Assembly (NCBI GenBank): GCA_018902385.1 | Contig: JABSSW010000034.1 | Location: 458,828 to 522,827, forward strand | Length of the DNA: 64,000 nucleotides | Source: Physcia stellaris | Taxonomy: Eukaryota; Ascomycota; Lecanoromycetes; Caliciales; Physciaceae | Direction of reading: 5' to 3' | In this document: piece after piece, positions 5,911 through 50,760 of the stretch | Numbering within the stretch: position 1 is the stretch's first letter | Layout of the letters: the number at the start of each line of letters is the position of its first letter | The notes under the pieces: generated by a model | Told to the model about the DNA's origin: nothing | The model's database searches: none | What the model saw: only the letters and a program-made list of their open reading frames with translations | Position numbers and translations under genes: made by a program

Positions 5911-6116
5911 CAAATTTTGAACATTGTGCGAGGTTGTATGAAGATTGATGATATACCGATTTCGCAGTTTGCGTTCTCTTCGCATCACGTTTTCTTCTTT
6001 GCATTCTGTCTTTAATTGCATCACGTTTTTCTTTTCTTCGCATCACGTCTTCATCTTCGACGAGTCAAAGTGCTCACTGTTACGAGCGTGCCCGACTGAG
6101 TAGCACGCCAGAAACA

Positions 6117-6353
6117 GTGCTATCGAATCAGTCAATCAGGAGTCAGTATCTGACTCACCAACAGCAGAATCAACTGCTATACCAGTACGAGTACGCTCTA
6201 TTACGACGGCTCGTACACCATTGGCCGCCTTCCCAGCTGAATCGGCTCGTCAACAACCTAACGAGCCAACAACCCCTACCTACTATTTGCTCGGCAACCT
6301 CCCCAGTTACCGCACGAGGATCCCGCCCATTACAGCCCGAGAAAGATCCTTGA
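6117..6353 (+). CDS. Hypothetical 78-aa ORF, perhaps a transposase N-terminal scrap
   Basis: ATG to TGA with Gln-rich, basic sequence containing LLYQYEYALLRRLVHHWPPS and, near the end, RPLQPEKDP. The pattern of a Gln-rich helix followed by LLRRLVHHWPPSQLNRLVNN resembles helix-turn-helix starts of pogo/Tc1-like fungal transposases, but I cannot confirm this. No matching catalytic region follows downstream; the frame closes within the GC-balanced block. No promoter is recognised. Treat as a possible fragment of a DNA transposon or a host ORF. Confidence 0.3.
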   Translation: MLSNQSIRSQYLTHQQQNQLLYQYEYALLRRLVHHWPPSQLNRLVNNLTSQQPLPTICSATSPVTARGSRPLQPEKDP

Positions 6354-6750
6354 ATAGCGTTCGCCAGCCAAATCGACGCGTCCTCTCACCCTCTTGCTTG
6401 AGTTCGGCAGAAGCCCAAGTGACAGTATCAAAGGCTGTGCGAGCGGCCTGAAAGAAGGGTCCGTGAAGGTCGGTGTATGTCTGTGGCCTTCTAGAAGAAT
6501 CCATTGTGAAGCCACGCCAGTACTGAATCTAGGCTGGTCCAGAATGCACGGGAATCCCTTGTCCCAATAGCTGATGGCCGCCGATTGAATGCTAGTCCGA
6601 GTGTTATCTCAGGTTGGGGTCGGGTTTCATGCCGCTCCATCATAAACCAGTCCAACATGACTATCGAGGCCGGCTGTTGTGATGTAAGACCATTGACGAC
6701 TTTGTCCCGAGAGAGCAAGGTGGTACCTGCGCGCCTCGCATTTGTGCAAG
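6354..6750. other. No gene seen
   Basis: Overlapping short ORFs on both strands (for example 6491-6718 minus and 6585-6776 plus) have no domain or coding signature. Nothing further is recognised. Confidence 0.3.
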
Positions 6751-36593: not shown

Positions 36594-36962
36594 TCAGCAA
36601 TTTTTCGTTTTGACAAATTTTATCATATCAAAATCATTGAGCAAACATTTGCTTTTTATATCGAAAAATTTTATGTCGAATGAATGTTTTACATTCGATT
36701 CATGAAAAATCAATTCAAAATCAATCAATGTGATCGTTTTGCAATGAATTCGAATGACGTCAAATTCGTGTATGTCGAAATTTTTTGAAAAAAAAAAATC
36801 ACATTCACACATGTTATGAAAAGCAAAAATCATTTCGAAATCAAACAAAAAACGTATTTGAATCGATTTCAAAAAATTTTTAAAATAAACGTTCAAAAAA
36901 CATCGACGAAAATGAAAAATATTTACGATAAATATTTGAATTATAAACAAACAATTAAACAA
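36594..36962 (-). pseudogene. Unassigned mutated frame in the BIR retroelement
   Basis: 122-codon minus frame rich in Phe, Ile and Cys without motifs; it lies downstream of the finger segment. It may be protease-region sequence, but no active site is readable. Confidence 0.3.
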
Positions 36963-37171
36963 TCAATCATAAATTATGATGTTTATCGAATTGTTTTAAT
37001 AACATAATTCATTTCGAATTTGAAATTTAATAGCAAAAAAAATTACAGAATTTCGTCAAAGAATTATTATCGAAACATAAACGTTTTTTTGCAAAAAAAC
37101 GCGATATGCATACTAAAATAAAATTTTTGAATCGTTTCAAAAAAATCGAAAACGCTGATTATCAAAATAAT

Positions 37172-37648
37172 TTACATAACAAACAAAAATTTATCGAAAA
37201 TTATAAAAATAACGAATGAAATAAATGAATTTCTTGATCGTTTTGAAAATGTTACGAATTTAAATATCGAAATTTTTGTTGTTGTTTTTGATAAAATTGT
37301 TGTTAAAATTGTTGAAATTATTGATAAAATTTTATTTTTTTTTCTATTGAAATTTCGTTTCGAAACGTTTTTAATTATTTTTTTCGTTGTCGTGACATGA
37401 TGTTGACGAATATGTTCGTGCAATTTATTTTTTGAATCGAAAATTTTTTCGCATTGTTTGCAAATCGTTTTCTGACAAATAATTTTTTGAATATATTGCA
37501 AAAATCGAATCAATGACGAAAAAAACGCAAAACAATTGAAACAAAAATAATATTGAGACGAAAAACGAAAAAACGAATTCGATGTGAAAATTTCGAATTT
37601 CGAAAAAGAAAAATTTGCAGAAAATTTCGTAAAAAATGCAATGATCAA
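37172..37648 (-). pseudogene. C2H2 zinc finger segment of the BIR retroelement, copy 2
   Basis: Reads TICKQCEKIFDSKNKLHEHI then RQHH: C-x2-C-x12-H-x3/4-H, the same finger type as 3667-3963 and 14046-14816. It is followed by KRNFNRKKNKILSI, which also follows the finger in the copy at 47655-48298. Position after gag matches the gag-pol linker of fungal gypsy elements. Confidence 0.65.
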
Positions 37649-37714
37649 AACTTTTAATCATTCGTTTAAATTTTTCTTGACGATTTCGATTTCGAATTCG
37701 TTTTGTTGTTTATA

Positions 37715-38095
37715 TCAAATCAATGCAAAATTACGAAAACATTCGAACAACAAAATCAACAAATTTGATTCACGATATTGATGTTGACATTGTCGAAATT
37801 GTTGCACAAAATTCGCGATTTCGCAAAACAAATTGAATTTCTGAATATCGCACAGAAGAATTGCATCGAAATAATCGATATTGGCAACAACGAAAATGAA
37901 TTTCGAAATTTCGATTACAATTTCTGAAATTTCGAATTTCGTCGTTTCGAATTGTATAGCGAACGAACATTCAAATGATTTCTGAAAATGTTTCTTTAAT
38001 GATTCAAAATTTCGATTTCTCGTTATTGTTAACGAACAATGCATACATTTTGTTCTGTATTTATCGTGAATGTTTCTGAATTCAACGATTGTCAC
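37715..38095 (-). pseudogene. Second BIR-like domain and gag core, copy 2
   Basis: The zinc part reads KCMHCSLTITRN then FESLKKHFQKSFECSFA: C-x2-C-x15-H-x6-C, with H-x4-(P-to-F)-x-C-(P-to-S)-F as in BIR domains. Upstream, across two TGA codons at Trp positions, TYEKRLTILTN(TGA) gives the BIR start R-L-x-x-(F/L)-x-x-W, and IVEF stands where BIR has A-G-F (GCT to GTT, GGA to GAA). After a linker the frame continues to FVQQFRQCQHQYRESNLLIL then CFRNFALI, a retrotransposon gag core (LL-x-x-LP-x-C-L-x-x-x-A-L-x-W) ending at TGA for that Trp. Confidence 0.65.
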
Positions 38096-38163
38096 TGTTT
38101 TTTTATTTAACGAATCGAATCAGATTCAATTCGTTAAAATTGTCAATCTCTTTTCGTATGTGT

Positions 38164-38490
38164 TCAGAAATTTGATGAACGAAGCAAAAACAAAAAAAAA
38201 TTCGATTTTCGACTTTTCAACGATTTTTTCGACTCGATTTCTTGTTGAAATTGTATGACGAACGAACAATGTGATGCTTTGTGAAAATGTTTTTTCAACG
38301 ATTCGAATGTGAAATATTCATCGTATATTAACAACGAACAAATGATGCATTGCATGACGTTGAAATTTGAATTGTCATTTTTGAAAAGTCAACGACGATC
38401 ATGATTGTTTTGAAATGACGAAATGTTTCAAGAAATTTCAAACAAAATTTCAGAATCGCTAATCGCTCGTCATACGTGAATAACGATTTC
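38164..38490 (-). pseudogene. First BIR-like domain, copy 2
   Basis: TYDERLAILKF opens the domain at about 38483-38450 (R-L-A-x-L); IVVDF follows where a BIR has A-G-F; then, in a shifted frame, MQCIICSLLIYDEY and FESLKKHFHKASHCSFV give C-x2-C-x16-H-x6-C, exactly BIR spacing. Two frame changes lie in the domain. The sister copy at 48023-49400 lacks this first domain. A role in the element is unknown; BIR domains in eukaryotes bind caspase-like or chromosomal passenger partners. Confidence 0.6.
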
Positions 38491-38639
38491 AAAGAAAGAA
38501 AATTCGAAATTTTACTGTCACAAAAAAACAGAAAAATAAAATTCATGACGAGCGAATTGAAATCGAAAAGATTGAAAAATTTTCTGAACAAAAACGAAAA
38601 AAACGAATCGATTCGACGTGCAAACGCGTATATTTTGAT

Positions 38640-38960
38640 CAGATATTTCAAATTGTATTGAAAATATGTTCATGCAATTGTTGAAAAAGATTGTCGAACA
38701 AATAAAATAATGAATAAATGAAATGCGAACGAACGAATCGAAAAACTTTTTCAAACGAAAACAGAAAAAACGCGTTTATTCGATTTGCAAATGCGTGTAT
38801 TTCAAAATCGTTTTCGAATTGTAATGAGTAAAATACTCGTGCAATCATTGAAAAAGTTGTCGAACAAATAAATAAATAAAAATTGAAATGTTGATGATTC
38901 GTACGAATCGAAAAACTTTTTCGAACGAAAACGAAAAAAACGCGTGAATTTGACTTGCAA
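38640..38960 (-). repeat. Tandem leader repeat, about 166-bp unit
   Basis: TTGTCGAACAAATAAA recurs at 38691 and 38857, with the surrounding GCAATCATTGAAAAAG, CGAATCGAAAAACTTTTTC and CAAACGTGTAT-like parts repeated. Related units lie at 46557-46630 and 48955-49215. They precede the BIR-gag coding part on the minus strand. Confidence 0.65.
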
Positions 38961-38965
38961 ACGTG

Positions 38966-39180
38966 TATGAAATGTCATGCATTGATTGAATTAATACATA
39001 ATTACACGAGAATTTTTAAATAAAAAACAAATACATGAAAATCTGTAAAAACATATGTAAAAAATTAAATCGTTTGAATGCGTCAAGACGATTTTCGACT
39101 TTAACATTCGATGTGATAAAATAACGATGTTAACACGATGTTAATTTGTCAGATGTTGAATTCGATGCACGTTCGTCACA
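38966..39180 (-). repeat. 3' LTR of the nested gypsy element
   Basis: 215 bp, near-identical to 46341-46556; the few differences are mostly G/A and C/T. Confidence 0.9.
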
Positions 39181-41460
39181 TTATTTTTCGTTTTTTTTCA
39201 ATTTCGTTTCGAAACGATTAATTGATTTTTTTGAACGTTTTGCGCGATGTAAATATGTTTTTGAATGACGTCGAATTGATTGATCGTCGAAACAAAAAAA
39301 TAAACGCGAAACGTCGCGAAAAAAATTTCGTCAACGAAATAAATTCGTTTAAATTTCACATTCATATGATTATATTTTGAAATAAACAGTTTGAATTTAT
39401 TTGTAAAATCGTCGTGACAATTTTTAATGCATTGATATTTTCGAATTTGCGAAAATCGATGTGTACATTGCATGTAACAAAACGTGAATGCAATAAATGT
39501 TTTAAAAAATAATCAATTCATGCAATTCGTTAAAAATAATTTCGACGAACATTAATAAACAAATCATTGAAAATTCGATTTCGCGTATCGACAATTTTGA
39601 GAATTTTTGCAACATCAAATTGATATCACGAGACGAGCAATTTGATCAAATTGATGAAATTTTTGTCATCACGATTAACACGTCGACGTTATCGCATATA
39701 AAACAGTTGATTCGTACAATGCATTCAACAAAATATGCATGTATTAGATTTTTTGAAAAGCAAACATTTTGTACGAATTTTATAAATAATTTCGCGTGTC
39801 ATTAATAAACAATTGAAAATTTTGTTGACGAATTTGTAAATATTCGAATTTTTTGACAATTTGTTGTTTATTTATATCATTGCATGACATTTTACATTAT
39901 CATTCATTGTTCAGTAAGATTTGACGACAGTTTTTGAAAATGTTTTTGACACGATTCAACTTTTTATGCGATGTAAGTTTTGATTGTAAATAACGCAAAG
40001 TAACAACGAAGCGAATGACAATGAAAAAAATCATTGACGTCAATTTGAGAATGAGTTGTAACGAATTCGATAACAATCTTTTAATCGATCATAAACAATA
40101 AAGTTCACGATTTAGTCATTTCGCAAAGCAAATTTTGTTGTTTTTGAGTTAATTTCGTGAAAGACATCGACGATATTTTGAACATTTTGAAATTCATCGT
40201 CGTCGACATAGTATCAAATGCGATCGTGAAAATTTCAATTCGATCATTTACAGCGATATTGAAAGCGATGATAATGATATCGAAATTGCAATATGTCGTC
40301 GAATTTTCATTCGAACGTTTCATTTGCGATGACGAGTTTCGAAAAATCGTTGTGTTGTTTTTTCAATGAATCGTTGAAATTTTTTTTTAACAATCAAAAA
40401 TGAAAAATTGAATGAATGTGCATGTCATCGAACAATTCGAATTTGTAAACAATATTTCGTTTCTTGACAACGAAATATGAATTTAATTTTTTGTCATTCA
40501 ATTTATTAAATGAACGAATCGTTTTGATATAACGACGATTTAATCACACATAATTTTTTATTTCAAAATTGATAAAAAAACGAAATTTGTTGATTCGAAC
40601 AATCATTTTTTGTTTGACATCGACAGCGTTGATTTTAATTCATTCGATGATGCGATTCATTTTTTCGACAATGAATTCGTTTTGTTTGATTAATAAACGT
40701 TTTTTAATGATTTCGTAATCATTCAAATTTGAATCAAAAATCATTCGAAAATGATAATCTTTATTGATGAAAAAAAAATGAATTCGATGATTGCGAAAAC
40801 GTCATTGTTGTCAACGAATTTCATGATGTCGATTCAATCAATTCAATCGTTTTGACGATAATTGCAATACAAACGTAAACGAATTTCAATGTTTTGATTA
40901 ATTCGTTCGATTTGATCATCGATTTGAAATTGAAATGTCGTGAACAATTTACATTTGATTTTTAAACGTTTGCAAAAAATTTTTCAAACGCGATTTACAA
41001 ATTGATCATTTCGATTCGAAACGATTGAAAAAAATAAATCATGCGTGCGAAATACGTAATGAAACAATATTTTGACGCAAATTTCGATTGTCAATTCGTC
41101 ATCATCGATCACGCAAAAAACATAATGTCGTTTTTTGATTAATCGATCGATAATAATGCAAATAACGTTGTTTTTTTTGAATTCAAATAATTCGATTATG
41201 AAATTTATCGAAATATTTATTCATCGCTGATTAAATATTGACAATGATGTTAACAATTCATGACGATCATCGTGTGAAAATTTAAATCGTTGACATTTGT
41301 GACAATTACGAATGTAACGTTTGATAAATAATCGCATATTGAATCAATAATAATAGCGTTTAATGAGTTTTTCAATGCGATTCATGTTCGAATGAACACA
41401 AAAAAATTGATCGTGAACATCGCGAATTATTTCAATCATGAAATCTAGACGATTTGATAC
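39181..41460 (-). pseudogene. Integrase and C-terminal region of the nested gypsy element
   Basis: Near 41300-41240 the minus strand reads RYIRNCHKCQRFK, the C-x-x-C half of the integrase HHCC domain. Downstream frames (40323-40105, 39473-39198) are mutated beyond recognition; the core DDE residues could not be placed. The sequence just inside the 3' LTR (TTTCGTTTCGAAACGATTA) is shared with the BIR retroelement at 47096-47140, so both families have related 3' ends. Confidence 0.55.
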
Positions 41461-41971
41461 TCATAAATTCTCGTTTTTGAAGAAAACGTCGTCTCGATTT
41501 GAACATTCTTGTAAATTTATTTTCTCGTTGATAATCTGCTCATCGATCAAAGTCTGACGATGATTAATGCAATTCTCATTTTCTCGATTGATTTTCATTA
41601 TCCGTTCGTACAAATCGTTTTGAGCGTCAATCGAACACAATTGCAATCGAAAAAACGACAACAAAATTTGCTTTTTATAAAGTTTTCGTTCGTCGTCATC
41701 GACAAAACGAAATTCAAACATTCGAATCAAAACGTTCGTTTTAACATTTTTGATTTCGAATTGATATTGAATTTTGATGTTGTAATCGATCAAAATTTTT
41801 GTTCAACGTATTTGACGAGAAATAAATTTTTTGTTTGTCATGAAAATTTTCAAATTTTTGTGATCGATGTAAATTTCGACGAATTCGTCGATATTTTCGA
41901 ATTCGAATTTTCAATGTTTCAAACATCGAATAATGATTAAAAGTTTTTTGTCGTATATTTCGTAATTGCAT
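41461..41971 (-). pseudogene. RNase H C-terminal remnant
   Basis: 41793-41461 reads MIDYNIKIQYQFEIKNVKTN, VLIRM, equivalent to the D-Y-x-I-x-Y-x-P-G-x-x-N-x-x-A-D-x-L-S-R end of gypsy RNase H. ALSR has become VLIR by C-to-T changes at GCT and TCT-like codons. Confidence 0.65.
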
Positions 41972-42373
41972 TCGACAAAAATCATTTTTTTGTTGAAAAA
42001 AGTCATCGAATGAAAAATTTTTTCGTTATCGTATTGCGACAGAATTTCATTCAAACATCAATTCGATAAATCAATTTTTAATGTAATTTTACGATTACGA
42101 TCGTAATGTCGAAATATGAAAATTTCGATAATTTGTTTTTTCAATGTTTCGAACGTTTCATTGACGAAATCGATTCATTCGAAATCAGTTTTTTTTTTGA
42201 TTATTCGAGTCAAAAATTTGACGAATTTGAAAAATATTTTGATGAAACGACGATAAAAATTGCAAAAATTCATAAACGTTTGTATTTTTTTAATGCAAAT
42301 TGAACGAATTCAATTGACGATATTTTGAATTTTTTGAAATTCATACGTAAGTTTTTTGTCGTTAATATGACGT

Positions 42374-42992
42374 TCAAAAATGAGATTTTCGTTTGAAAAA
42401 TTCGCATTTCTTGATATCAATTTGAAATTCGATTTCTTTTAATTTTTGAAATATTTGTGTGAAATGTCGTTCATGTTTTTTTCGAATTTTGCTGTAAATA
42501 AAAATATCGTTCAAATAAATTTGACAAAAATGATTAATGTATTCGAACAACAAATCGTTCATGTAATGTTGTCAATTCGTCGAATCATTTGTTAATTCGA
42601 AAAATAATACAAAATATTTGTAAATGTTTAACGAACATATAAAAATAATCAATTTTTCGCTTTGTGAATTCATTCGAAATTTATTGAAAATCGATATAAT
42701 GTTCAATTTGAACAGAAATTTGCAATTTATAATTCGAACAAGAATTTTCTCAATCAATGATATAAAATAATCATTGCGTTTGATTATGACGTTTAATTTT
42801 CGATAATTTACACATAAACGAAATTGTTCGTTCGATTTGACGACGAATAAAATGAACGATGCGTACGATGTTTTGTTTGAATTGATAAATTTTTTTGAAA
42901 ATTTTCGTGAAAATACTTTTGAAAAATTTCGAATTTTTTGACGATAAAGAATAAACTCGATTTCGAGACAATTGTTTCGATTTTTCGATCAA
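42374..42992 (-). pseudogene. Reverse transcriptase remnant of the nested gypsy element
   Basis: 42757-42572 reads INCKFLFKLNIISIFNKFRM and YKYFVLFFELTN, matching RT fingers/palm (K-x-F-x-K-L-D-I-x-x-A-F-x-x-I-R-M and Y-x-Y-x-V-L-P-F-G-L-T-N). 42562-42374 reads FCQIYLNDIFIYSKIRKKHE, the catalytic Y-L-D-D-I-x-I-Y-S box at about 42517-42506 with the first Asp changed to Asn. Frame changes and TGA codons separate the pieces. Confidence 0.85.
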
Positions 42993-43029
42993 TTCGATTT
43001 TGTGATCGTAAAATTTATGAAAAAATAAT

Positions 43030-43837
43030 TTATCGATTTTTTGAAATTGAACACGCTTTCGAATCGTTTAAAAAAATCAAAAATTTTCGTTTCAATTTTT
43101 CGACGATTGCTTTCATGATTTTAAAAATTTTTTTGAAATCGATATCGAAATCGAATTTTATTTTGATTAAATTTTCTCGAACGTCGTCAATGATTTCGTT
43201 CAATTTTTTCATGATTAATGAAAACGTCTTGATTTTTTTTTTTTTTTTTTCGATTTTGTCAAAATTGATAAATAGCGACGTCGATAAAAACGACATTCAA
43301 AAACGTTTCGAAATCAAAATTTTGTTCGTCGTTTTCATTATCGAAAATCGAAATTTTGAATCGTTTATTAAATCGTCGAGCAAATTTCTTGATTAAATTC
43401 GATTTTCGAATAAAAATTTTCACGAAAATAAATCGTTGAGAATCTCGTATGATTTTAATTCGTTTTTTTTTTTTCGAGAATTTGTCAAAAAAATATTTTT
43501 TATCAATCTTTTCGATGACATATCGATAATTAAAATTCAATATGTTTTTGAAAAAGAATTTTTTTTCGTTTTCGAAATTCTCGACGATAAAAAAAAAAAA
43601 TTTAATTTTGAACGAAAATGAAAATGATCGTTTTTGAATAATTCGATATTTTTGAAAATTTATCGATATCGACTGTTTGATCGATGATGTTGACGATGAA
43701 AAATAAATTTTTTTAAAAAAAATTGATCGTTCGTTTTTAATTTTCAAAATTTTGAACGTTTCGAAATGAAAACAGCGATCGAATTTGAAAATAATTTTAT
43801 CGTTTTTTATATTCAAAATGATTTCGTGAACGTTCAT
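43030..43837 (-). pseudogene. Linker region of the nested gypsy element
   Basis: A 192-codon frame (43837-43259) and an 88-codon frame follow the protease. They are basic and Phe/Lys-rich without motifs; frames on the opposite strand are shadows. Probably the protease-RT spacer. Confidence 0.45.
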
Positions 43838-44206
43838 TCAAAACTTATTCAATATCAACGAATGAATTTCAATTTTGATTATGAACATGAAAATCGTGAT
43901 TTCTAAATGATTTTGCACGATAAATGTAAAATAAATGACATGAATAATAAATTTAATTTTTCGATCATCGAATTCGTTGACGAATTTCGATCGTGATAAA
44001 ATCACACAAATTATTTGAAATGTTTCACAAATTAATTGCGCAATTTTTTCATCAATGAAAACGTATTCAATGACATTTGTATTCATTAATGTTTGCAAAT
44101 TATGTTCGTATTTATCGAAAATTAATGTACATTTAATTATTAAAAAATTGTTTTGAAATTTATTGAACGTGTTGAATGTTTTTGACATTGTTAAAATAAA
44201 CAACAT
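43838..44206 (-). pseudogene. Retropepsin-like protease remnant
   Basis: 122-codon frame: NTNVIEYVFIDEKIAQLICE, ILSRSKFVNEFDDRKIKFII and IIKIEIHSLIL. It matches the protease block of fungal gypsy elements (D-S/T-G-A-T-G-Y-A-F-I-D-x-x-x-A, then P-x-x-V-x-G-F-D-G-R, then L-G-x-H-P-I-I-L-G). DTGATG reads NTNVIE, changes expected from G-to-A and C-to-T at GG, GAC and GCT. Confidence 0.7.
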
Positions 44207-44389
44207 TTTCGTCGCGATTTTGAAAAGATTTAAACGTTTTTCGATTCATGAATAAAAAAATCTCGTTGTTAATATCATTAGAATAATCATCAAAAAAAAT
44301 TGAATCGATTTCGATTTGAAAATTCATCAAAAATTCATTCATTTCGTTGATTGTCAAAATGTTTTTTTTTTGTTTAATTTTTTGAACAA

Positions 44390-45496
44390 TCAAATATCGA
44401 TAATTTTAAAAAGAAAACAATTTCGTATCAAATGATTGAAATTTTCACAACGATAACAATTTTTATCGATGTCATTTTTATCATAAAAAATTTTCATGAT
44501 CATTTGATCGACGACGAACATGATTTTTTTGACGTTAAACATGTTATCACGAATTACGATTTTGACAATTGATGTTTTGAAAATAATTCGTGAAATATTT
44601 TTAAATGTCGAATTTTCGAAACGTGTGATTTCAAAAAAATGTAATTTTTGATTCATTTTTTCAATCAATTTTTTTAAATTTTCGATTGTTTCAAATCGAT
44701 CGTTATTAACAATGACTCGTTGAAATTGAAAAGTAAATTTTTCGCGAAATTCGTCTGTCAGATTTTGTTTCGAATAATGAAACAATTGATTGAACAACAT
44801 CAAAAATTCGAAAAAAAATTTCGAAAAACGTTGATTGATACGCATGATAAAAATTTTGAATTTATTGCGTACGTTTCGTTTTTTGTTTTTTTCAACATAA
44901 ATCAAAATCAAAACATCAAAAATCATTTGAAAAATTTTGAAATAAACAATGTCAATTTTACGTCGAGCGAATAAATGTTCGCGAATTTTGTTTTCGATTC
45001 AATTGATAAATGTCGTTGTTTTGATATATTCGTGAACGAAATGATTAACGTTAACAATGAATTTGTTTTTGATCAATTGTTTTCAAATCTCGTAAAAAAG
45101 ATTTGAAATGTTTTCATTGAATTTGAAAAAATTCGACATTTTGACATTTTTATTCTTTTTATCGATGAACAATGTGAAATTGAAAATTGACGTTGTTGTG
45201 ATTTTTAGAAAATTTATTTCGTTTTGCAATTTTACATTGCGATTGATCAATTTAACATTTTCGATTTTGAATTTGATGTCATTTTGAAAAATGAACGTTG
45301 TTGTAAAATTCATTCGAAAAATATTCATTTCGTCACGCAACGTTTGATTATTTTTTTTGAATTTTTCATTTTCGATGTTGAGTTTGAATTTATCGACATT
45401 GAATTGATTTATATTTTTATTTTCTCGTCGAAATAAACTGACGATTTCTCGATTGTGTTTTTTGTTTTTTTCGATTTTTTCGAAATTTTTGATCAA
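44390..45496 (-). pseudogene. Gag remnant with zinc knuckle
   Basis: Frames 45496-45083 (coiled-coil-like, Asn/Lys-rich) and 44926-44390. The latter contains SKFFFEFLMLFNQLFHYSKQ and ends with CYRCENFNHLIRNC at about 44460-44415, a C-x2-C-x4-H-x4-C nucleic-acid-binding knuckle. This is the capsid-nucleocapsid part of the nested element. Confidence 0.75.
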
Positions 45497-46340
45497 CGAG
45501 TTATAATTTTTTACGTGAACGTTTCAATTTCAAACAGTTTGAATTTTCGCGTCACGATCGATTTTCAATTGATTCAACATTTGCAATATCGTGAAAAAAT
45601 TTTTGCGAATTCATTGTTGAAATTGTTCGACGATACAAATGTTTATCGCATGTTTCGTATCGTTCGAATTGTAATTTGCGTTTTTCGAAAAAACGTAATT
45701 TAAAAAAATGTTTTTTATCAATTTGAATGAATCGACGATAATTTGATTATTTTTCGAAAAAATTGTTAATTGTTGAATTTGATTAAAAATTTTGCGTTTA
45801 AATTTAAAAAAAATGATCACAAAAAAATGTTGATAAAAATAAACATGATTGAAATTTTAATGCAAAAAAAATTTCGTTTCAATGAATTCGACAATAAATA
45901 TTCAAAAATAATCGTGTTTTAAAAATTTGATCGTGAAAAACAACGAAAACAATTTTAAATTAATGTTATTTTCGATGAAATAATTCGTGTTGATTTATGA
46001 TGAATAATTTTTGATAAAACGATGAATGTTGAATTTCGATTTATCGTATAAATGTTTGTTGATTGATAATTTGACGATTATTTTTGCAATTCGTTTTTCG
46101 ATATATTCGATTTGATACATCGATTTTCGCGATAAACATTTTTTTGAAAATTTTGTACAACACTAAAGCGAATTAAGTTTTTTGTTTTTTTTTGTTGATT
46201 CGTTGAATAAAATCGAGTCTTTTTGTTCAATTTGATTTTGAAAATGACGTTTTAAATTTTCGTGATTGATTTGAAATTTTGTTTATTGAATAAATTGTCG
46301 TATTTCGAACAATTTGAAAAAATGAATGATTTAAAAATAA
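45497..46340. other. 5' leader of the nested gypsy element
   Basis: AT-rich, mutated DNA between the 5' LTR and gag. Short frames only. Confidence 0.4.
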
Positions 46341-46556
46341 TGTGAAATGTCATGCATTGATTGAATTAATACATAATTACACGAAAATTTCTAAATAAAA
46401 AAGCAAATACATGAAAATTTGTAAAAACATATGTAAAAAATTAAATCGTTTGAATGCGTCAAAACGATTTTCGACTTTAACATTCGATATGATAAAATAA
46501 CGATGTTAACACGATGTTAATTTGTTAAATGTTGAATTCGATGCACGTTCGTCACA
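46341..46556 (-). repeat. 5' LTR of the nested gypsy element
   Basis: 216 bp, TGTGAAATGTCATGC to TTCGTCACA, followed by the target duplicate ACGTG. Confidence 0.9.
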
Positions 46557-46926
46557 ACGTGTGTATTTTTCGAATTGTAATAAAAATGTGTTCGTGCAAT
46601 CGTTGAAAAAATTGTCGAGCAAATAAATAAATGATTTGATAAATAAATTTTGACTCGTGCAATTATCGAAAAAATATATATGTCGAGCAAATGATAAAAA
46701 AACGATCAATGAAATTGTACGATTTGCTGAATAAAATCGTATTGATGAACAATTGATTTTGCAATTGATAAATCAAATATTTGAATTTTGATTGATTGAT
46801 TCGATAACATCGTTGATTGATAATGTTATTCAATTCGTGTTGTCTTTTTGACGATCATTGATGATTAAACAAACGCATACAACAAATATACGTTTTTTGA
46901 TGAATAGAAATGAAATTTTAAAATAA
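46557..46926 (-). mobile_element. BIR retroelement copy 2, leader part right of the nested insertion
   Basis: Continues 38965 after removal of the nested element: a tandem leader repeat unit (46557-46630), then a segment also present left of the LTR at 49522 (46770-46926 aligns with 49365-49521, for example GATAACATCGTTGATTGATA). It ends at the LTR 46927-47095, which is therefore the 5' LTR of copy 2. Confidence 0.6.
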
Positions 46927-47095
46927 TGTTACAATCGTGCATGATAGTCGATATTCATTAAACGAAAATTCTAAAACTAGAAAAAAAGTATGTACAAATG
47001 AAAATCGAAAAATATGTGTAAAATTTGCGAAAATCAAATTTTAATCACGTGTTTTTTCAGTTTTGCGACAATGTTTTCGAAACACGTTCGTAACA
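46927..47095 (-). repeat. LTR shared by two tandem BIR retroelements
   Basis: 169 bp, TGTTACAATCGTGCATGATA to CACGTTCGTAACA. It matches 49522-49692. It is the 3' LTR of copy 1 (to the right) and the 5' LTR of copy 2 (to the left). Confidence 0.75.
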
Positions 47096-47416
47096 TTATT
47101 TTTTTCTTTTTACAAATTTCGTTTCGAAACGATTATTTTTTTATATTTTTTTTATCGATCGACGATTTCAAAAATATCGTTAATTAAAACGTAAATAATT
47201 GAACGAAATATTGTTAAAATTAAAATAATCGAAACAAATATAACAAACATAATTTAAAAACGAAAATCGAAAAAACGACGAAAACGTAAACGAAAACACA
47301 AATCGAAATTATACAAATGAAAATTTTGATTGCAAAAATGAAAATTTTGTTAAAGATTTTAATTGCAACGAAATATAAAAATATTTGTTATTTTGTGCAA
47401 CGAAAAAATCGATTTT

Positions 47417-48026
47417 TCAAATAAAACAAAACGATATCGATTTCGCGAACGTATATTGCTGAAAATTTTTCGAATTCGAATTTTTCAAATTTTGATTAAT
47501 CGATGTTTTTTGATTGATTGCAAACAAAAAATAAACGATAATTCGTAATTGATAAATAAATGAACGAACGTCAAAATTTTGCGAAAAAAAACGACGTTTT
47601 TGATGTTGCGACAAATCAAATAATTTAAATTTTTCACGAAACATGCGAATCAAATCATCGATTGTAAAATGAAATTTCGAAATCGATTTTCGAAATCTTA
47701 ATGCAAATGTTGCGAACAAAATAAATAACGAACATGTTGTCGATGCAATTTTCACAAATTTTGATATAATTTCGAATGTAAATAATGAAAAACGCGAACG
47801 TTTCGATGAAATTCAAAATATTTGTTTTGATGTTGCAACAAAAATAACAAACGAAATAAATAAATTTTTGATTTGTTTTGAGATTAATGACAAATCTAAA
47901 TATCGAAAAATTTGATATTGTTGTTGATGAAATGATTAATGAAATTGATTGTGAAATTGTTGATAAAATTGATAAAATTTTATTTTTTTTTTTATTGAAA
48001 TTTCGTTTCGAAACGAATTTATTCAT
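47417..48026 (-). pseudogene. Gag-pol linker of BIR retroelement copy 1
   Basis: 48026-47655 starts NKFVSKRNFNKKKNKILSIL, shared with copy 2. 47755-47417 reads KFHFTIDDLIRMFREKFKLF, DLSQHQKRRFFSQNFDVRSF and IIVYFLFAINQK, similar to the L-T-I-x-D-L-x-x-M-F and R-I-T-x-Y-F-L-P-A-x-N-Q-K segment that I associate with fungal gypsy gag-pol linkers. Not catalytic. Confidence 0.5.
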
Positions 48027-48298
48027 TTTTTCGTTGCATGATGTTGACGAATATATTCGTGAAATTTATTTTTCGAATCAAAAATTTTTTCGCAATGTTT
48101 GCAAACGATTTTTTTGCAAACGATTTTTTGAATATGTTGCAATAATCGAATCAATGACGAAAAAAACGCGAAACAATTCAAACACGAATGATATTGCGAC
48201 GAAAAACGAAAAACAAACGAAACAAAAAAAAAATTTCGAATTTCGAAAATTTCGTAAAAAAAATCTTTCGAATTTCGAAAATTTCGCAAAAAATGCAA
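48023..48298 (-). pseudogene. C2H2 zinc finger segment of BIR retroelement copy 1
   Basis: Reads KIVCKHCEKIFDSKNKFHEY then IRQHH. Same finger and spacing as copy 2. Confidence 0.65.
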
Positions 48299-48365
48299 TG
48301 ATCAAGATTTTTAATCATTCGTTTAAATTTTTCTTGACGATTTCGTTTTCGTTTTGTTTCTTGTA

Positions 48366-48775
48366 TCAGATCAATGCAAAATTACGTCGACAATCGAATA
48401 ACAAAATCAGCAAATCTGATTTTCGATATTGATGTTGACATTGTCGAAATTGTTGCAAAAAGTTCGCGATCTCGTTAAACAGATTGAATTTCAGAATATC
48501 GCAAACGAGTGTTGCATCGAAAAAGTCGATATTTGCAACAACAAAAATGAATTTCGTGATTTCGAATTGTAAAACAAACGAACATTCAAATGATTTTTGA
48601 AAATGTTTTTTTAACGATTCGAAATTTCGATTATTCGCTATTTTCAACGAGCAATGTATACATTTTGTTTTGTATTCATTATCAATGCATTTGAATTCAA
48701 CGACGATCATGAATTCTTTAATAAAATCATTGTTTTTTCAAATTCAATATTGAAAATTCGCTAATTTTTTTTCGT
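48366..48775 (-). pseudogene. BIR-like domain and gag core, copy 1
   Basis: With TGA read as former Trp the minus frame at 48775-48711 gives TYEKKLANFQYW-I-W then KNNDFIKEFMIVVEFKCID, followed by KTKCIHCSLKIAN, FESLKKHFQKSFECSFV. This lines up with a BIR: R/K-L-A-x-F-x-x-W, A-x-A-G-F (here I-V-V-E-F), C-x2-C, H-x6-C with a final C-x-F. The gag part reads FLQQFRQCQHQYRKSDLLIL then RRNFALI and TGA. This single frame is the cleanest copy: only two TGA codons interrupt the whole BIR. Confidence 0.65.
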
Positions 48776-48954
48776 ATGTGTTCAAAAATTTGACGAACGA
48801 AACGAAAACAAAAAAAAATTCGATTTTCGATTGAAATTTCGTAAGAAAATTCATGACAATAGAATGTTTCATGACGAACGAATTGAAAATTGTTTTGAAT
48901 GAAAATTTTCGATATAAATTTATGACGTGCATTTTCGATCGAAAATAAAAAAAA

Positions 48955-49215
48955 CGCGTCGATTTGATTTGCAAACGCGTGTGTTTTGATCAAATATTTC
49001 AAATTGTGATGAAAATAAATGTTCGAACGATTTCTGAAAATTGTCGAACAAATAAACAAATAAATGCTGATGCGAACGAACGAATCGATGAATTGTTTCA
49101 AACGAAATTGAAAAAAACACGTTATTTCGATTTGCAAATGCGTATATTTCAGAATTTTTTTCGAACTGTAATGAGTAAAATGTTCGTGCAATCGTTGAAA
49201 AAATTGTCGAGCAAA
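48955..49215 (-). repeat. Tandem leader repeat, copy 1
   Basis: Units with TTGTCGAACAAATAAA (49041) and TTGTCGAGCAAATAAA (49204), spacing 163 bp, related to 38640-38960. Confidence 0.65.
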
Positions 49216-49521
49216 TAAATATTGATGACTCGAACGATTGTCGACAAACGATTCGATTAATTGTTTGTTTCGAAAACGATACGATATTAAATGAAATTGT
49301 AAATCTGAATAAAATCGAAAATTTATTGATGTAACAATTGATTTTGTTGTATGATAAATCAAATTTTGAATTTTAATTGATTGATTCAATAACATCGTTG
49401 ATTGATAATATTATTCAATTCGTGTTGTTTTTTTGACGATCATTGATGATTTGTTAAAAAAACGCATACAAATACATGTATACGTTTTTCATTGAGTAAT
49501 AAAAATGAAATTTTAAAATAA

Positions 49522-49692
49522 TGTTACAATCGTGCATGATAGTCGATATTCATTAAACGAAAATTTTAAAACTAAAAAAAAAATGTACAGATGAAAATCG
49601 AAATGATATATAAAGATTGCGAAAATCAAATTTTAATCACGTGTTCTTTTCAATTTTGCGACAAACAATGTTTTCGAAACACGTTCGTAATA
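49522..49692 (-). repeat. 5' LTR of BIR retroelement copy 1
   Basis: About 171 bp, matching 46927-47095; the last bases read TAATA instead of TAACA. Confidence 0.75.
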
Positions 49693-50760
49693 TTTATTCG
49701 ATTTTATATTTAGTTCGAATGCAAAATCGTTATTATTAAATACGTTGAAAAAAACGACGTTTTTTTACATATTTTTACATTGATGACATATTCGAAACAT
49801 ATCGTATTTTCGAAAAACAATAACATCTTTTTGAATGATTTTTTTTTTTCGAATTTTGTGATTTTAAAGACGAATTTTTCTATTCAAATTGAAAATCGAA
49901 ATTATCGAATTCAAAACACTCGATCAATTACATCGAATCGATGAAATCTTGAACATCAAACAAAAATTCATGAATAAAATACGCAATTGATCAGTTTTTC
50001 AAAATGTCATTACGATACGAAATTTTTTAAAAACGATACAATTTATTAAACGTTGAATGTTCAATTTCGATGAAATCGCGAAATCATTACAACGTATTTG
50101 CGACAATAAAATCGAATGACGATAATTCGAATTCGAAAATTTGTTTTTTCAAATTTTGAAAAGATTATGTTTCAATGTAATAAACATGTTTGATCATAAT
50201 TTCACGTTGTTTTGTGAAATTTATACAGACGTTTCAACATACGATGAAAATATTTACATCAATCAATTGCAAAACGATGAAAACAAATTTATATTATATG
50301 ATTGCGTTTCGTTCAATTCAATTCAACGTAATTACGATATTTACAAACGAAAACTGTTCACAATTGTTCATTTTATTAAAAAATACGAACATATTTTTGA
50401 TTCGAAAAATCGAAACACAATTCATATCGATCACAAATCGTTCGTGAAATTCATGAATGCGCAAAAACACGAAAATATTTATGTTCGTTGAATCAACAAA
50501 TTTCGAAATCACAATATTCAAATCAAATACATTGAAAACAAAAAAAATAAAATGATCGACGATTTTTCACGTGTGATTTTCGTCGAAAAAAAGTTTATTT
50601 TTCATGAAAAATGACGAGCTGATTTCGAGTCGTGAATTCGAAAATTCACAAATTTCGTTTTGTGACATTCGAAATCACGCATATATTAATTTTGAACATA
50701 ATATAAATTATCAAAAATTATGATGAAATGTTCGCAAAATCTTGATAATTTTTTTGATTA
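49693..50760 (+). pseudogene. RT end and RNase H remnant of a gypsy element
   Basis: From about 49970 the plus strand (TGA as former Trp) reads IRN(W)SVFQNVITIRNFL, IE(W)R(W)FEFE, then the frame 50141-50491: FTLFCEIYTDVSTYDENIYI, NSIQRNYDIYKRKLFTIVHF, KKYEHIFD and IHIDHKSFVKFMNAQKHENI. These are the RNase H hallmarks (TDAS, RNYSxYxRELxAIV, TDHKPLxxF). Afterwards KKNKMIDDFSRVIF resembles the A-D-x-L-S-R-x-I/V-F end. It starts directly at the LTR of the BIR retroelement, so it was cut by that insertion; its front part may be 33809-36300. Confidence 0.75.

What the first reader, a model, noticed from the sequence alone, without database searches (positions are those of the whole stretch)
36594..49692. 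LTR retroelement family carrying BIR-like (inhibitor-of-apoptosis repeat) zinc domains in front of gag
Three degenerate domain copies (two at about 38490-37990, one at 48775-48590) share the BIR layout: start (T)Y-x-x-(R/K)-L-(A/T)-x-(F/L)-x-x-W with TGA or mutated codon at the Trp in two of them, a V-(E/D)-F where BIR has A-G-F (exactly what C-to-T at GCT/GCC and G-to-A at GG produce), then C-x2-C-x15/16-H-x6-C with a following S-F where CPF is usual. They lead directly into a gag core (QQFRQCQHQYR...LL-x-LL...ALI) and a C2H2 finger, between LTRs. BIR domains are known in IAPs and survivin; I do not know of a fungal retrotransposon gag preceded by tandem BIRs. It could act in particle assembly, chromosome tethering or cell-death control.
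Basis: partly seen in the sequence, partly recalled or inferred. Interest (0 to 1): 0.88.

Follow-up and report, generated by a model that had tools for sequence, protein, structure and literature searches.

The report
Retrotransposons carrying apoptosis-inhibitor-type zinc domains
A lichen fungus carries many small jumping elements whose protein joins a zinc domain best known from cell-death inhibitors to a piece of retrovirus-like shell protein; we found no earlier description of this combination, and the damaged copies in this window belong to it.

Summary
The finding holds, without repairing any sequence. The window comes from the lichen fungus Physcia stellaris. Its two C-to-T mutated copies are relatives of natural, less mutated copies in the same genome. 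One (contig C48) has a 607-aa open frame with BIR, BIR, a capsid-like gag domain and C2H2 fingers, scoring 56 bits to Pfam BIR (cut-off 23). All 15 loci passing Pfam BIR were fetched. Twelve are 1.96-3.04-kb LTR elements with TGTTA...TAACA ends and exact 5-bp target duplications, too short for a polymerase: non-autonomous (TR-GAG-like) LTR retrotransposons. The three BIR-gag copies have an 11-nt self-primer of the Tf1 kind, with the geometry found in an apparently intact autonomous Gypsy on another contig, its likely helper. The other nine use initiator tRNA-Met and show no gag in the frames read. The gag region's predicted fold resembles the Ty3/Arc capsid N-lobe (middling scores). A PCNA-binding-type motif occurs in 12 of 12 elements. 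Zinc ligands are kept; dN/dS is below 1. Corrections: a 7.6-kb Gypsy is nested inside, unit 1 is truncated, unit 2 has one BIR, and window copies alone fail the Pfam cut-off. What the BIR does is inferred, not shown.

The parts
46926..49692 (-). Unit 2: mutated BIR-gag element with both LTRs, single BIR
   Evidence: LTR-family matches C34:505754-505922 and 508349-508401; ends read; coding homology 48833-47144
49521..49692 (-). 5' LTR of unit 2 (TATTACG...TGTAACA), followed by a mutated form of the self-primer site (by eye)
48560..48785 (-). BIR domain of unit 2 (degenerate)
   Evidence: tblastn with P0001 and P0009; Pfam alone 13.8 bits, below cut-off
48267..48548 (-). gag (capsid N-lobe-like) region of unit 2; boundaries interpolated from the alignment
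   Evidence: P0001 residues 176-364 aligned; fold of relatives
48026..48196 (-). C2H2 finger region of unit 2
   Evidence: zf-C2H2_4 E 1.6e-4, below its cut-off
47528..47551 (-). PIP-box-like motif QLRIIVYF in unit 2
   Evidence: frame 47417-47755; motif statistics
46926..47095 (-). LTR shared by unit 2 (3') and unit 1 (5'); TGTTACG...TGTAACA, followed again by the primer region
46557..46925 (-). Unit 1, 5' part, upstream of the nested Gypsy
   Evidence: 46566-47097 matches 49157-49694, 82%
38966..46556 (-). Nested autonomous-type Gypsy (mutated), not part of the BIR element; TSD CACGT read by eye
   Evidence: LTRs 46343-46556 / 38968-39180, 96%; gag/pol homology to L054 and end context
38233..38483 (-). 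First BIR of unit 1 (frame broken near 38380); boundaries interpolated
   Evidence: tblastn
37946..38176 (-). Second BIR of unit 1
   Evidence: tblastn
37650..37925 (-). gag region of unit 1 (stop at 37715); boundaries interpolated
37397..37570 (-). C2H2 fingers of unit 1; homology ends near 37205
   Evidence: zf-C2H2_2 5.4e-6, 27.0 bits (cut-off 26.9)

Best explanation
These are non-autonomous LTR retrotransposons of a Physcia lichen fungus. Their coding region runs: N-terminal BIR zinc domain(s), a Ty3/Gypsy-type capsid N-lobe (in the 3-kb family), C2H2 fingers and a PCNA-interaction-type motif. Shown: LTRs, target duplications, primer sites, BIR-BIR-gag-C2H2 in one natural frame in two of three copies, conserved zinc ligands, constraint. 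Inferred: the RNA is reverse transcribed and integrated by the machinery of an autonomous Gypsy such as the one on contig C12, with the element's own partial Gag joining the helper's particle through the capsid lobe. The BIRs (and PIP motif) most likely serve as an N-terminal protein-binding adaptor to a host nuclear partner (chromatin or replication machinery) rather than as caspase inhibitors. The window holds two mutated units in tandem, one interrupted by another Gypsy. The confidence given is for what the thing is; the host-adaptor step alone I put at 0.3-0.4.
Confidence: 0.8

Rival explanations
1. The BIR-like part is another zinc domain or chance; no true BIR is present.
For: Window fragments score at most 13.8 bits to BIR and also weakly match T_Ag_DNA_bind (E 0.002) and zf-BED.
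Against: Natural copies score up to 66.7 bits, 20 hits all over cut-off; profile A1 finds BIRC1/NAIP in PDB at 1.1e-10, BIRC8 at 4e-8 and XIAP at about 2e-6; P0036 finds BIRC1e at 5e-22; the 50 Foldseek rows shown are all BIR-protein entries (best E 3.3e-3, none under 1e-3).
Confidence: 0.03
2. A host IAP-like gene family amplified by gene duplication, not a mobile element.
For: Three gene models are annotated as host genes (P0007, P0014, P0015), and two of the 15 BIR loci (C23, C2) show no LTR pair.
Against: 12 of 12 elements tested have LTR pairs plus exact 5-bp TSDs and primer sites; the elements are 49.9-53.7% GC between 1-kb flanks of 22.0-41.8% GC.
Confidence: 0.03
3. The gag part is an unrelated helical domain; the protein is a BIR/zinc-finger protein with no role in particles.
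For: No Pfam gag hit; about 85 residues, one lobe only; middling fold scores; elements whose frames show no gag also move.
Against: Models of two different query proteins both have Ty3/Arc capsid N-lobes on top (the second tied with unrelated rows); the FFDPT...L.G.A..WY...W...L...F layout is that of Gypsy gags (recalled).
Confidence: 0.15
4. BIRs act in cell-death control (inhibiting metacaspase-type death) to protect the host cell during transposition.
For: Bir1 of Botrytis cinerea is reported anti-apoptotic and needs its two BIRs (PMC3158057, passages). The BIRs of L009/L010 and of P0034-P0036 keep the Trp-acidic groove region (for example DGWDKSDDP).
Against: In the gag-type BIRs that region is replaced (YSGYFTPEP); fungi lack caspases (recalled); no RING domain among the Pfam hits listed.
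Confidence: 0.1
5. BIRs are a matrix-like oligomerisation or RNA-packaging module only.
For: Position in front of the capsid lobe; zinc ligands and constraint not far from gag; in L055 a C2H2 finger occupies the same N-terminal place.
Against: BIR domains are mainly peptide-binding modules (recalled); a conserved PIP-type motif points to a host partner.
Confidence: 0.3

Closest known systems
TR-GAG non-autonomous LTR retrotransposons of plants (PMC8704663, passages read)
   Same: Two LTRs, a Gag-type ORF, no pol, an autonomous relative as presumed helper
   Different: Fungal; N-terminal BIR domains, C2H2 fingers; only a capsid N-lobe recognised; nine elements show no gag in the frames read
Tf1/sushi-type self-primed Ty3/Gypsy elements (recalled)
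   Same: 11-nt sequence just inside the 5' LTR complementary to the LTR, 5-bp TSD
   Different: No pol; primer site 2 nt from the LTR; RNA start not mapped
Fungal Bir1 / survivin and metazoan IAPs (BIR, PF00653)
   Same: BIR profile and C-x2-C...H-x6-C zinc ligands
   Different: Carried on mobile elements, in frame with gag and C2H2 fingers; groove region divergent in the gag type; no RING found
Arc / dArc1 and Ty3 capsid N-lobe
   Same: Predicted fold of the gag segment
   Different: No second (C-terminal) lobe recognised next to it; scores middling
LINE-1 ORF2p PIP box (PMC10830420, passages read)
   Same: PCNA-interacting motif in a retroelement protein
   Different: Here only a motif match in an LTR element; binding untested
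Shrimp repeat FAM31&207 with an IAP-like, three-BIR segment (PMC3124438, passages read)
   Same: BIR-coding sequence inside a highly repeated element
   Different: A 24-kb white-spot-syndrome-virus-related repeat of Penaeus monodon; no LTR or gag mentioned in the passages seen

Membership tests
BIR domain (PF00653) | Profile score over curated cut-off | tested here: met
   20 matches in own genome all over 22.9 bits; P0001 56.4 bits. Window fragments alone: not over the cut-off
BIR domain (PF00653) | Zinc ligands C-x2-C, H, C | tested here: met
   12 of 12 elements; 33-row alignment
BIR domain (PF00653) | BIR fold | tested here: met
   Weakly: AF2 pLDDT blocks 62-85 in the BIRs; Foldseek rows shown all BIR proteins, best E 3.3e-3; VIA-align Z for BIR rows only 3.3-4.2
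IAP (death inhibitor) | Binding of caspases or IBM peptides | not testable with these tools
   Groove region divergent by sequence in the gag type, kept in L009/L010
LTR retrotransposon | Paired LTRs and target-site duplication | tested here: met
   12 of 12 tested, exact 5 bp
LTR retrotransposon | Primer binding site | tested here: met
   Self-primer in 3 of 3 BIR-gag copies; complement of tRNA-iMet 3' end plus CCA in 9 others, 12 of 12 nt in eight and 11 of 12 in L017
TR-GAG (non-autonomous, Gag only) | No reverse transcriptase | tested here: met
   Elements 1.96-3.04 kb; frames scanned carry no RT by Pfam; none of the 150 RT matches scored (of 527 candidates) lies inside the 12 elements
TR-GAG (non-autonomous, Gag only) | ORF encodes Gag | tested here: inconclusive
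TR-GAG (non-autonomous, Gag only) | Demonstrated transposition with a helper | not testable with these tools
   Only indirect: identical LTRs in L019
Tf1-type self-priming | Primer site complementary to the RNA 5' end | tested here: inconclusive
   11-nt LTR complement found, shuffles 0, 1, 0 of 1000 in three related copies; RNA start unknown
PIP-box protein | Q-x-x-[ILM]-x-x-[FY]-[FY] (recalled consensus) | tested here: met
   12 of 12 elements in some frame; 32 of 40 proteins; PCNA binding not tested

The most novel reading that the evidence does not exclude
A whole radiation of parasitic LTR elements has taken up a survivin/IAP-type BIR domain, across two priming systems (self-primed and tRNA-iMet-primed), as the host-contact end of a Gag-like protein. 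Together with a conserved PCNA-type motif it ties particle or cDNA to mitotic chromatin or the replication fork, to time and place integration.
Probability: 0.25. Interest if true: 0.88.

Novelty: new variant of a known kind. Interest (0 to 1): 0.78.

Why it matters
BIR domains are known as parts of cell-death inhibitors and of the chromosomal passenger protein survivin/Bir1. Finding them as a conserved, selected part of many mobile-element proteins shows that retroelements capture and maintain regulatory zinc domains, and gives a compact natural system for asking what a Gag gains from a host-binding module. It also shows that Gag-only parasites, described from plants in the papers read here, have counterparts in a fungus with both self-primed and tRNA-primed versions. 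BIR genes annotated in such genomes could be mistaken for apoptosis regulators.

Tried and rejected
Considered and set aside: host gene amplification (LTRs and TSDs); chance zinc motif; the two window units as one autonomous element (the pol between them belongs to a nested Gypsy with its own LTRs). First thought that P0014 had lost its second BIR; the DNA shows it in frame, so the published gene model looks at fault. Pfam gag models: no hit. A 23-residue peptide around the PIP motif found nothing in PDB. The viral fold library gave IAP proteins among its best rows and nothing clear for gag. The BIR tree groups the two gag-type BIRs (99/97), pointing to duplication inside the element, and joins the L013-type BIRs to them (95/91), but the program warned of long branches meeting there; Bir1, P0003, L023 and P0034-P0036 were not resolved, so the source of the BIR is not settled. 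Standard TpA/ApT RIP indices do not flag the AT-rich DNA because the mutation context is unusual. Literature: searches for BIR with retrotransposon, transposable element, gag, Gypsy or LTR ([15 of 18 listed], 100) and for non-autonomous LTR elements of fungi listed no paper whose title or abstract start names such a fusion. Opened by passages: PMC3158057 (Bir1 as host protein), PMC3124438 (shrimp), PMC8905726 (clam IAP expansion); the others in those listings were seen as listings only. The library holds open-licence papers only.
Full report
What the window holds. The window lies at G000:C34:458828-522827 of a 43.97-Mb assembly in 147 contigs. The stretch 36594-49692 is AT-rich (25.6% GC). tblastn with the natural protein P0001 aligns two units on the minus strand: 38567-37250 (E 2e-108) and 48833-48026 (E 7e-68). 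Unit 1 has two BIRs, unit 2 one. Unit 2 has LTRs at 49692-49521 and 47095-46926; the latter is followed by the same primer region and then by sequence like that after the first LTR, so unit 1 begins at the shared LTR. A separate Gypsy with its own 96% LTRs (46556-38966) is nested in the 5' part of unit 1; its pol pieces are 39-56% identical to those of an apparently intact Gypsy on contig C12, and CACGT flanks both ends (read by eye). Homology of unit 1 stops near 37205.

Is the BIR real? Not from the window alone: fragment 48366-48710 scores 13.8 bits and the other three BIR-region fragments gave no BIR hit (cut-off 22.9). But the same genome has 20 Pfam BIR matches, all over the cut-off, at 15 loci (mutated copies such as the window's are not counted there). 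I fetched all 15. P0001 from contig C48 is a 607-aa open frame with two BIR stretches (4.4e-15) followed by the gag-like region and C2H2 fingers. L022 (C36) has the same order in one 587-aa frame. L019 (C26) has both BIRs in one frame and gag in another, so a frameshift lies between. Of 34 database relatives (where 7994 candidates were scored; three named Physcia stellaris, the rest unnamed ENA entries) I scanned 33, all but P0040: 20 of 33 match BIR at E<=0.01. Zinc ligands are nearly invariant. Profile and single-sequence searches of PDB find NAIP, XIAP and other BIRs.

Is it a retroelement? Twelve of the 15 BIR loci contain paired direct repeats that resolve to LTRs of 149-175 bp beginning TGTTA and ending TAACA, flanked by identical 5-bp duplications in 12 of 12. 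Elements are 1,962-3,039 bp long. Of the other three, C49 (L023) has LTR-family matches on both sides of its BIR (TSD not checked), while C23 (probably the host Bir1; label by analogy) and C2 (P0003) gave no such repeats. The LTR searches returned 29 and 41 matches, which are lower bounds. The elements are too short for pol, and none of the 150 RT matches scored (of 527 candidates) falls in the 12 elements. They are therefore non-autonomous.

How they are primed. In L015, L019 and L022, 11 nt (ATTCTAAAACT) two bases inside the 5' LTR are complementary to the LTR at about position 122; shuffles reached this 0, 1 and 0 times of 1000 (the three copies are related, so this is one observation rather than three). 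The apparently intact Gypsy of C12 (6,712 bp, LTRs identical, TSD GAATC, pol frame 1094 aa, CCHC gag) has a different 11-nt sequence with exactly the same geometry, and a 47-nt polypurine/LTR-start stretch 87-89% identical. It is the likely helper type. LTR bodies differ (49.7-51.6%; the tRNA-primed elements 41.7-48.2%). The nine other elements instead carry TGGTAGCATCAT, the complement of the genome's initiator tRNA-Met 3' end plus CCA, with one mismatch in L017.

Variation. BIR-less relatives exist: L055 has an N-terminal C2H2-like finger where the BIR would be, then gag, fingers and PIP motif, between 91% repeats. Many genome matches start only at residue 255-265 (72 of 324 candidates scored). 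So the N-terminal zinc module is exchangeable and the BIR is one choice. In the four frames of tRNA-primed elements read (P0002, P0004-P0006) I recognised no gag. The gag-type BIR pair probably arose by duplication inside the element (99/97 support, with a long-branch warning); the ultimate source of the BIR is unresolved.

Mechanism, most likely. The element RNA carries its own primer site and LTRs and is copied and integrated by a helper Gypsy (inferred). The element's protein is a partial Gag: the capsid lobe may join helper particles, fingers bind nucleic acid, and BIR plus PIP motif bind host nuclear proteins (inferred, about 0.3-0.4 for any host-tether reading). Cell-death control is possible but less likely, since the groove region of the gag-type BIRs departs from NAIP/XIAP, though L009/L010 and P0034-P0036 keep it.

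Novelty. Non-autonomous Gag-encoding LTR elements are known in plants as TR-GAG (PMC8704663, passages). A shrimp repeat related to a DNA virus carries an IAP-like segment (PMC3124438, passages). I found no report of BIR domains in LTR elements in the searches, within an open-licence library. I rate this a new variant of a known kind. On checking, I lowered confidence from 0.82 to 0.80 because the PIP motif is out of frame in the Physcia BIR-gag copies.

Limits. Genome letters were rationed, so most gag-only copies were not read. ENA relatives have no organism names. Age, expression and present mobility are unknown, apart from LTR identity of 100% in L019 and 98.3-99.4% in six others.

Noticed in passing
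window 36594-49692 and AT-rich DNA generally: C-to-T mutation context is unusual: relative to three GC-rich relatives, CpC 83-88% and CpT 67-82% changed, CpA 10-17%, CpG 10-19%, reverse changes 5-9%. Classical RIP prefers CpA (PMC2621366, passages). A CpC/CpT-directed, CpG-sparing RIP-like process in a lichen fungus deserves its own study.
   Followed up: partly
L012 (G000:C2:1420246-1420686): A 282-aa BIR-BIR-C2H2 frame (P0003) in GC-rich DNA with no LTR pair found: either a domesticated relative or a host gene of the type captured.
   Followed up: partly
window 46556-38966: Nested Gypsy, LTRs 96% identical, TSD CACGT by eye, pol related to the C12 Gypsy.
   Followed up: yes
L054/L056/L057 (G000:C12:55700-65300): Apparently intact autonomous Gypsy with identical LTRs in an otherwise heavily mutated repeat landscape; flanked by tandem AT-rich repeats.
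   Followed up: yes
window 3948-3886 (-) and 6049-6412 (+): Short similarities to the C2H2 finger and to N-terminal regions of some family proteins in the GC-rich left part of the window.
   Followed up: no
G000:C42:162541-163473: A 1043-aa open frame matched twice by the gag region, suggesting a gag duplication; P0038 also seems to have two gag-like segments.
   Followed up: no
L019 (G000:C26): Element with identical LTRs but a frameshift between BIR and gag: recent mobilisation in trans, or an assembly error.
   Followed up: partly
family proteins, e.g. P0009 residues about 527-545: A conserved LTIDDLxxMF motif, partly predicted helical at low confidence, lies before the PIP motif in both element types; function unknown.
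   Followed up: no
window 38581-39003: Three diverged (about 62%) tandem copies of an 86-nt unit upstream of the first BIR of unit 1.
   Followed up: no
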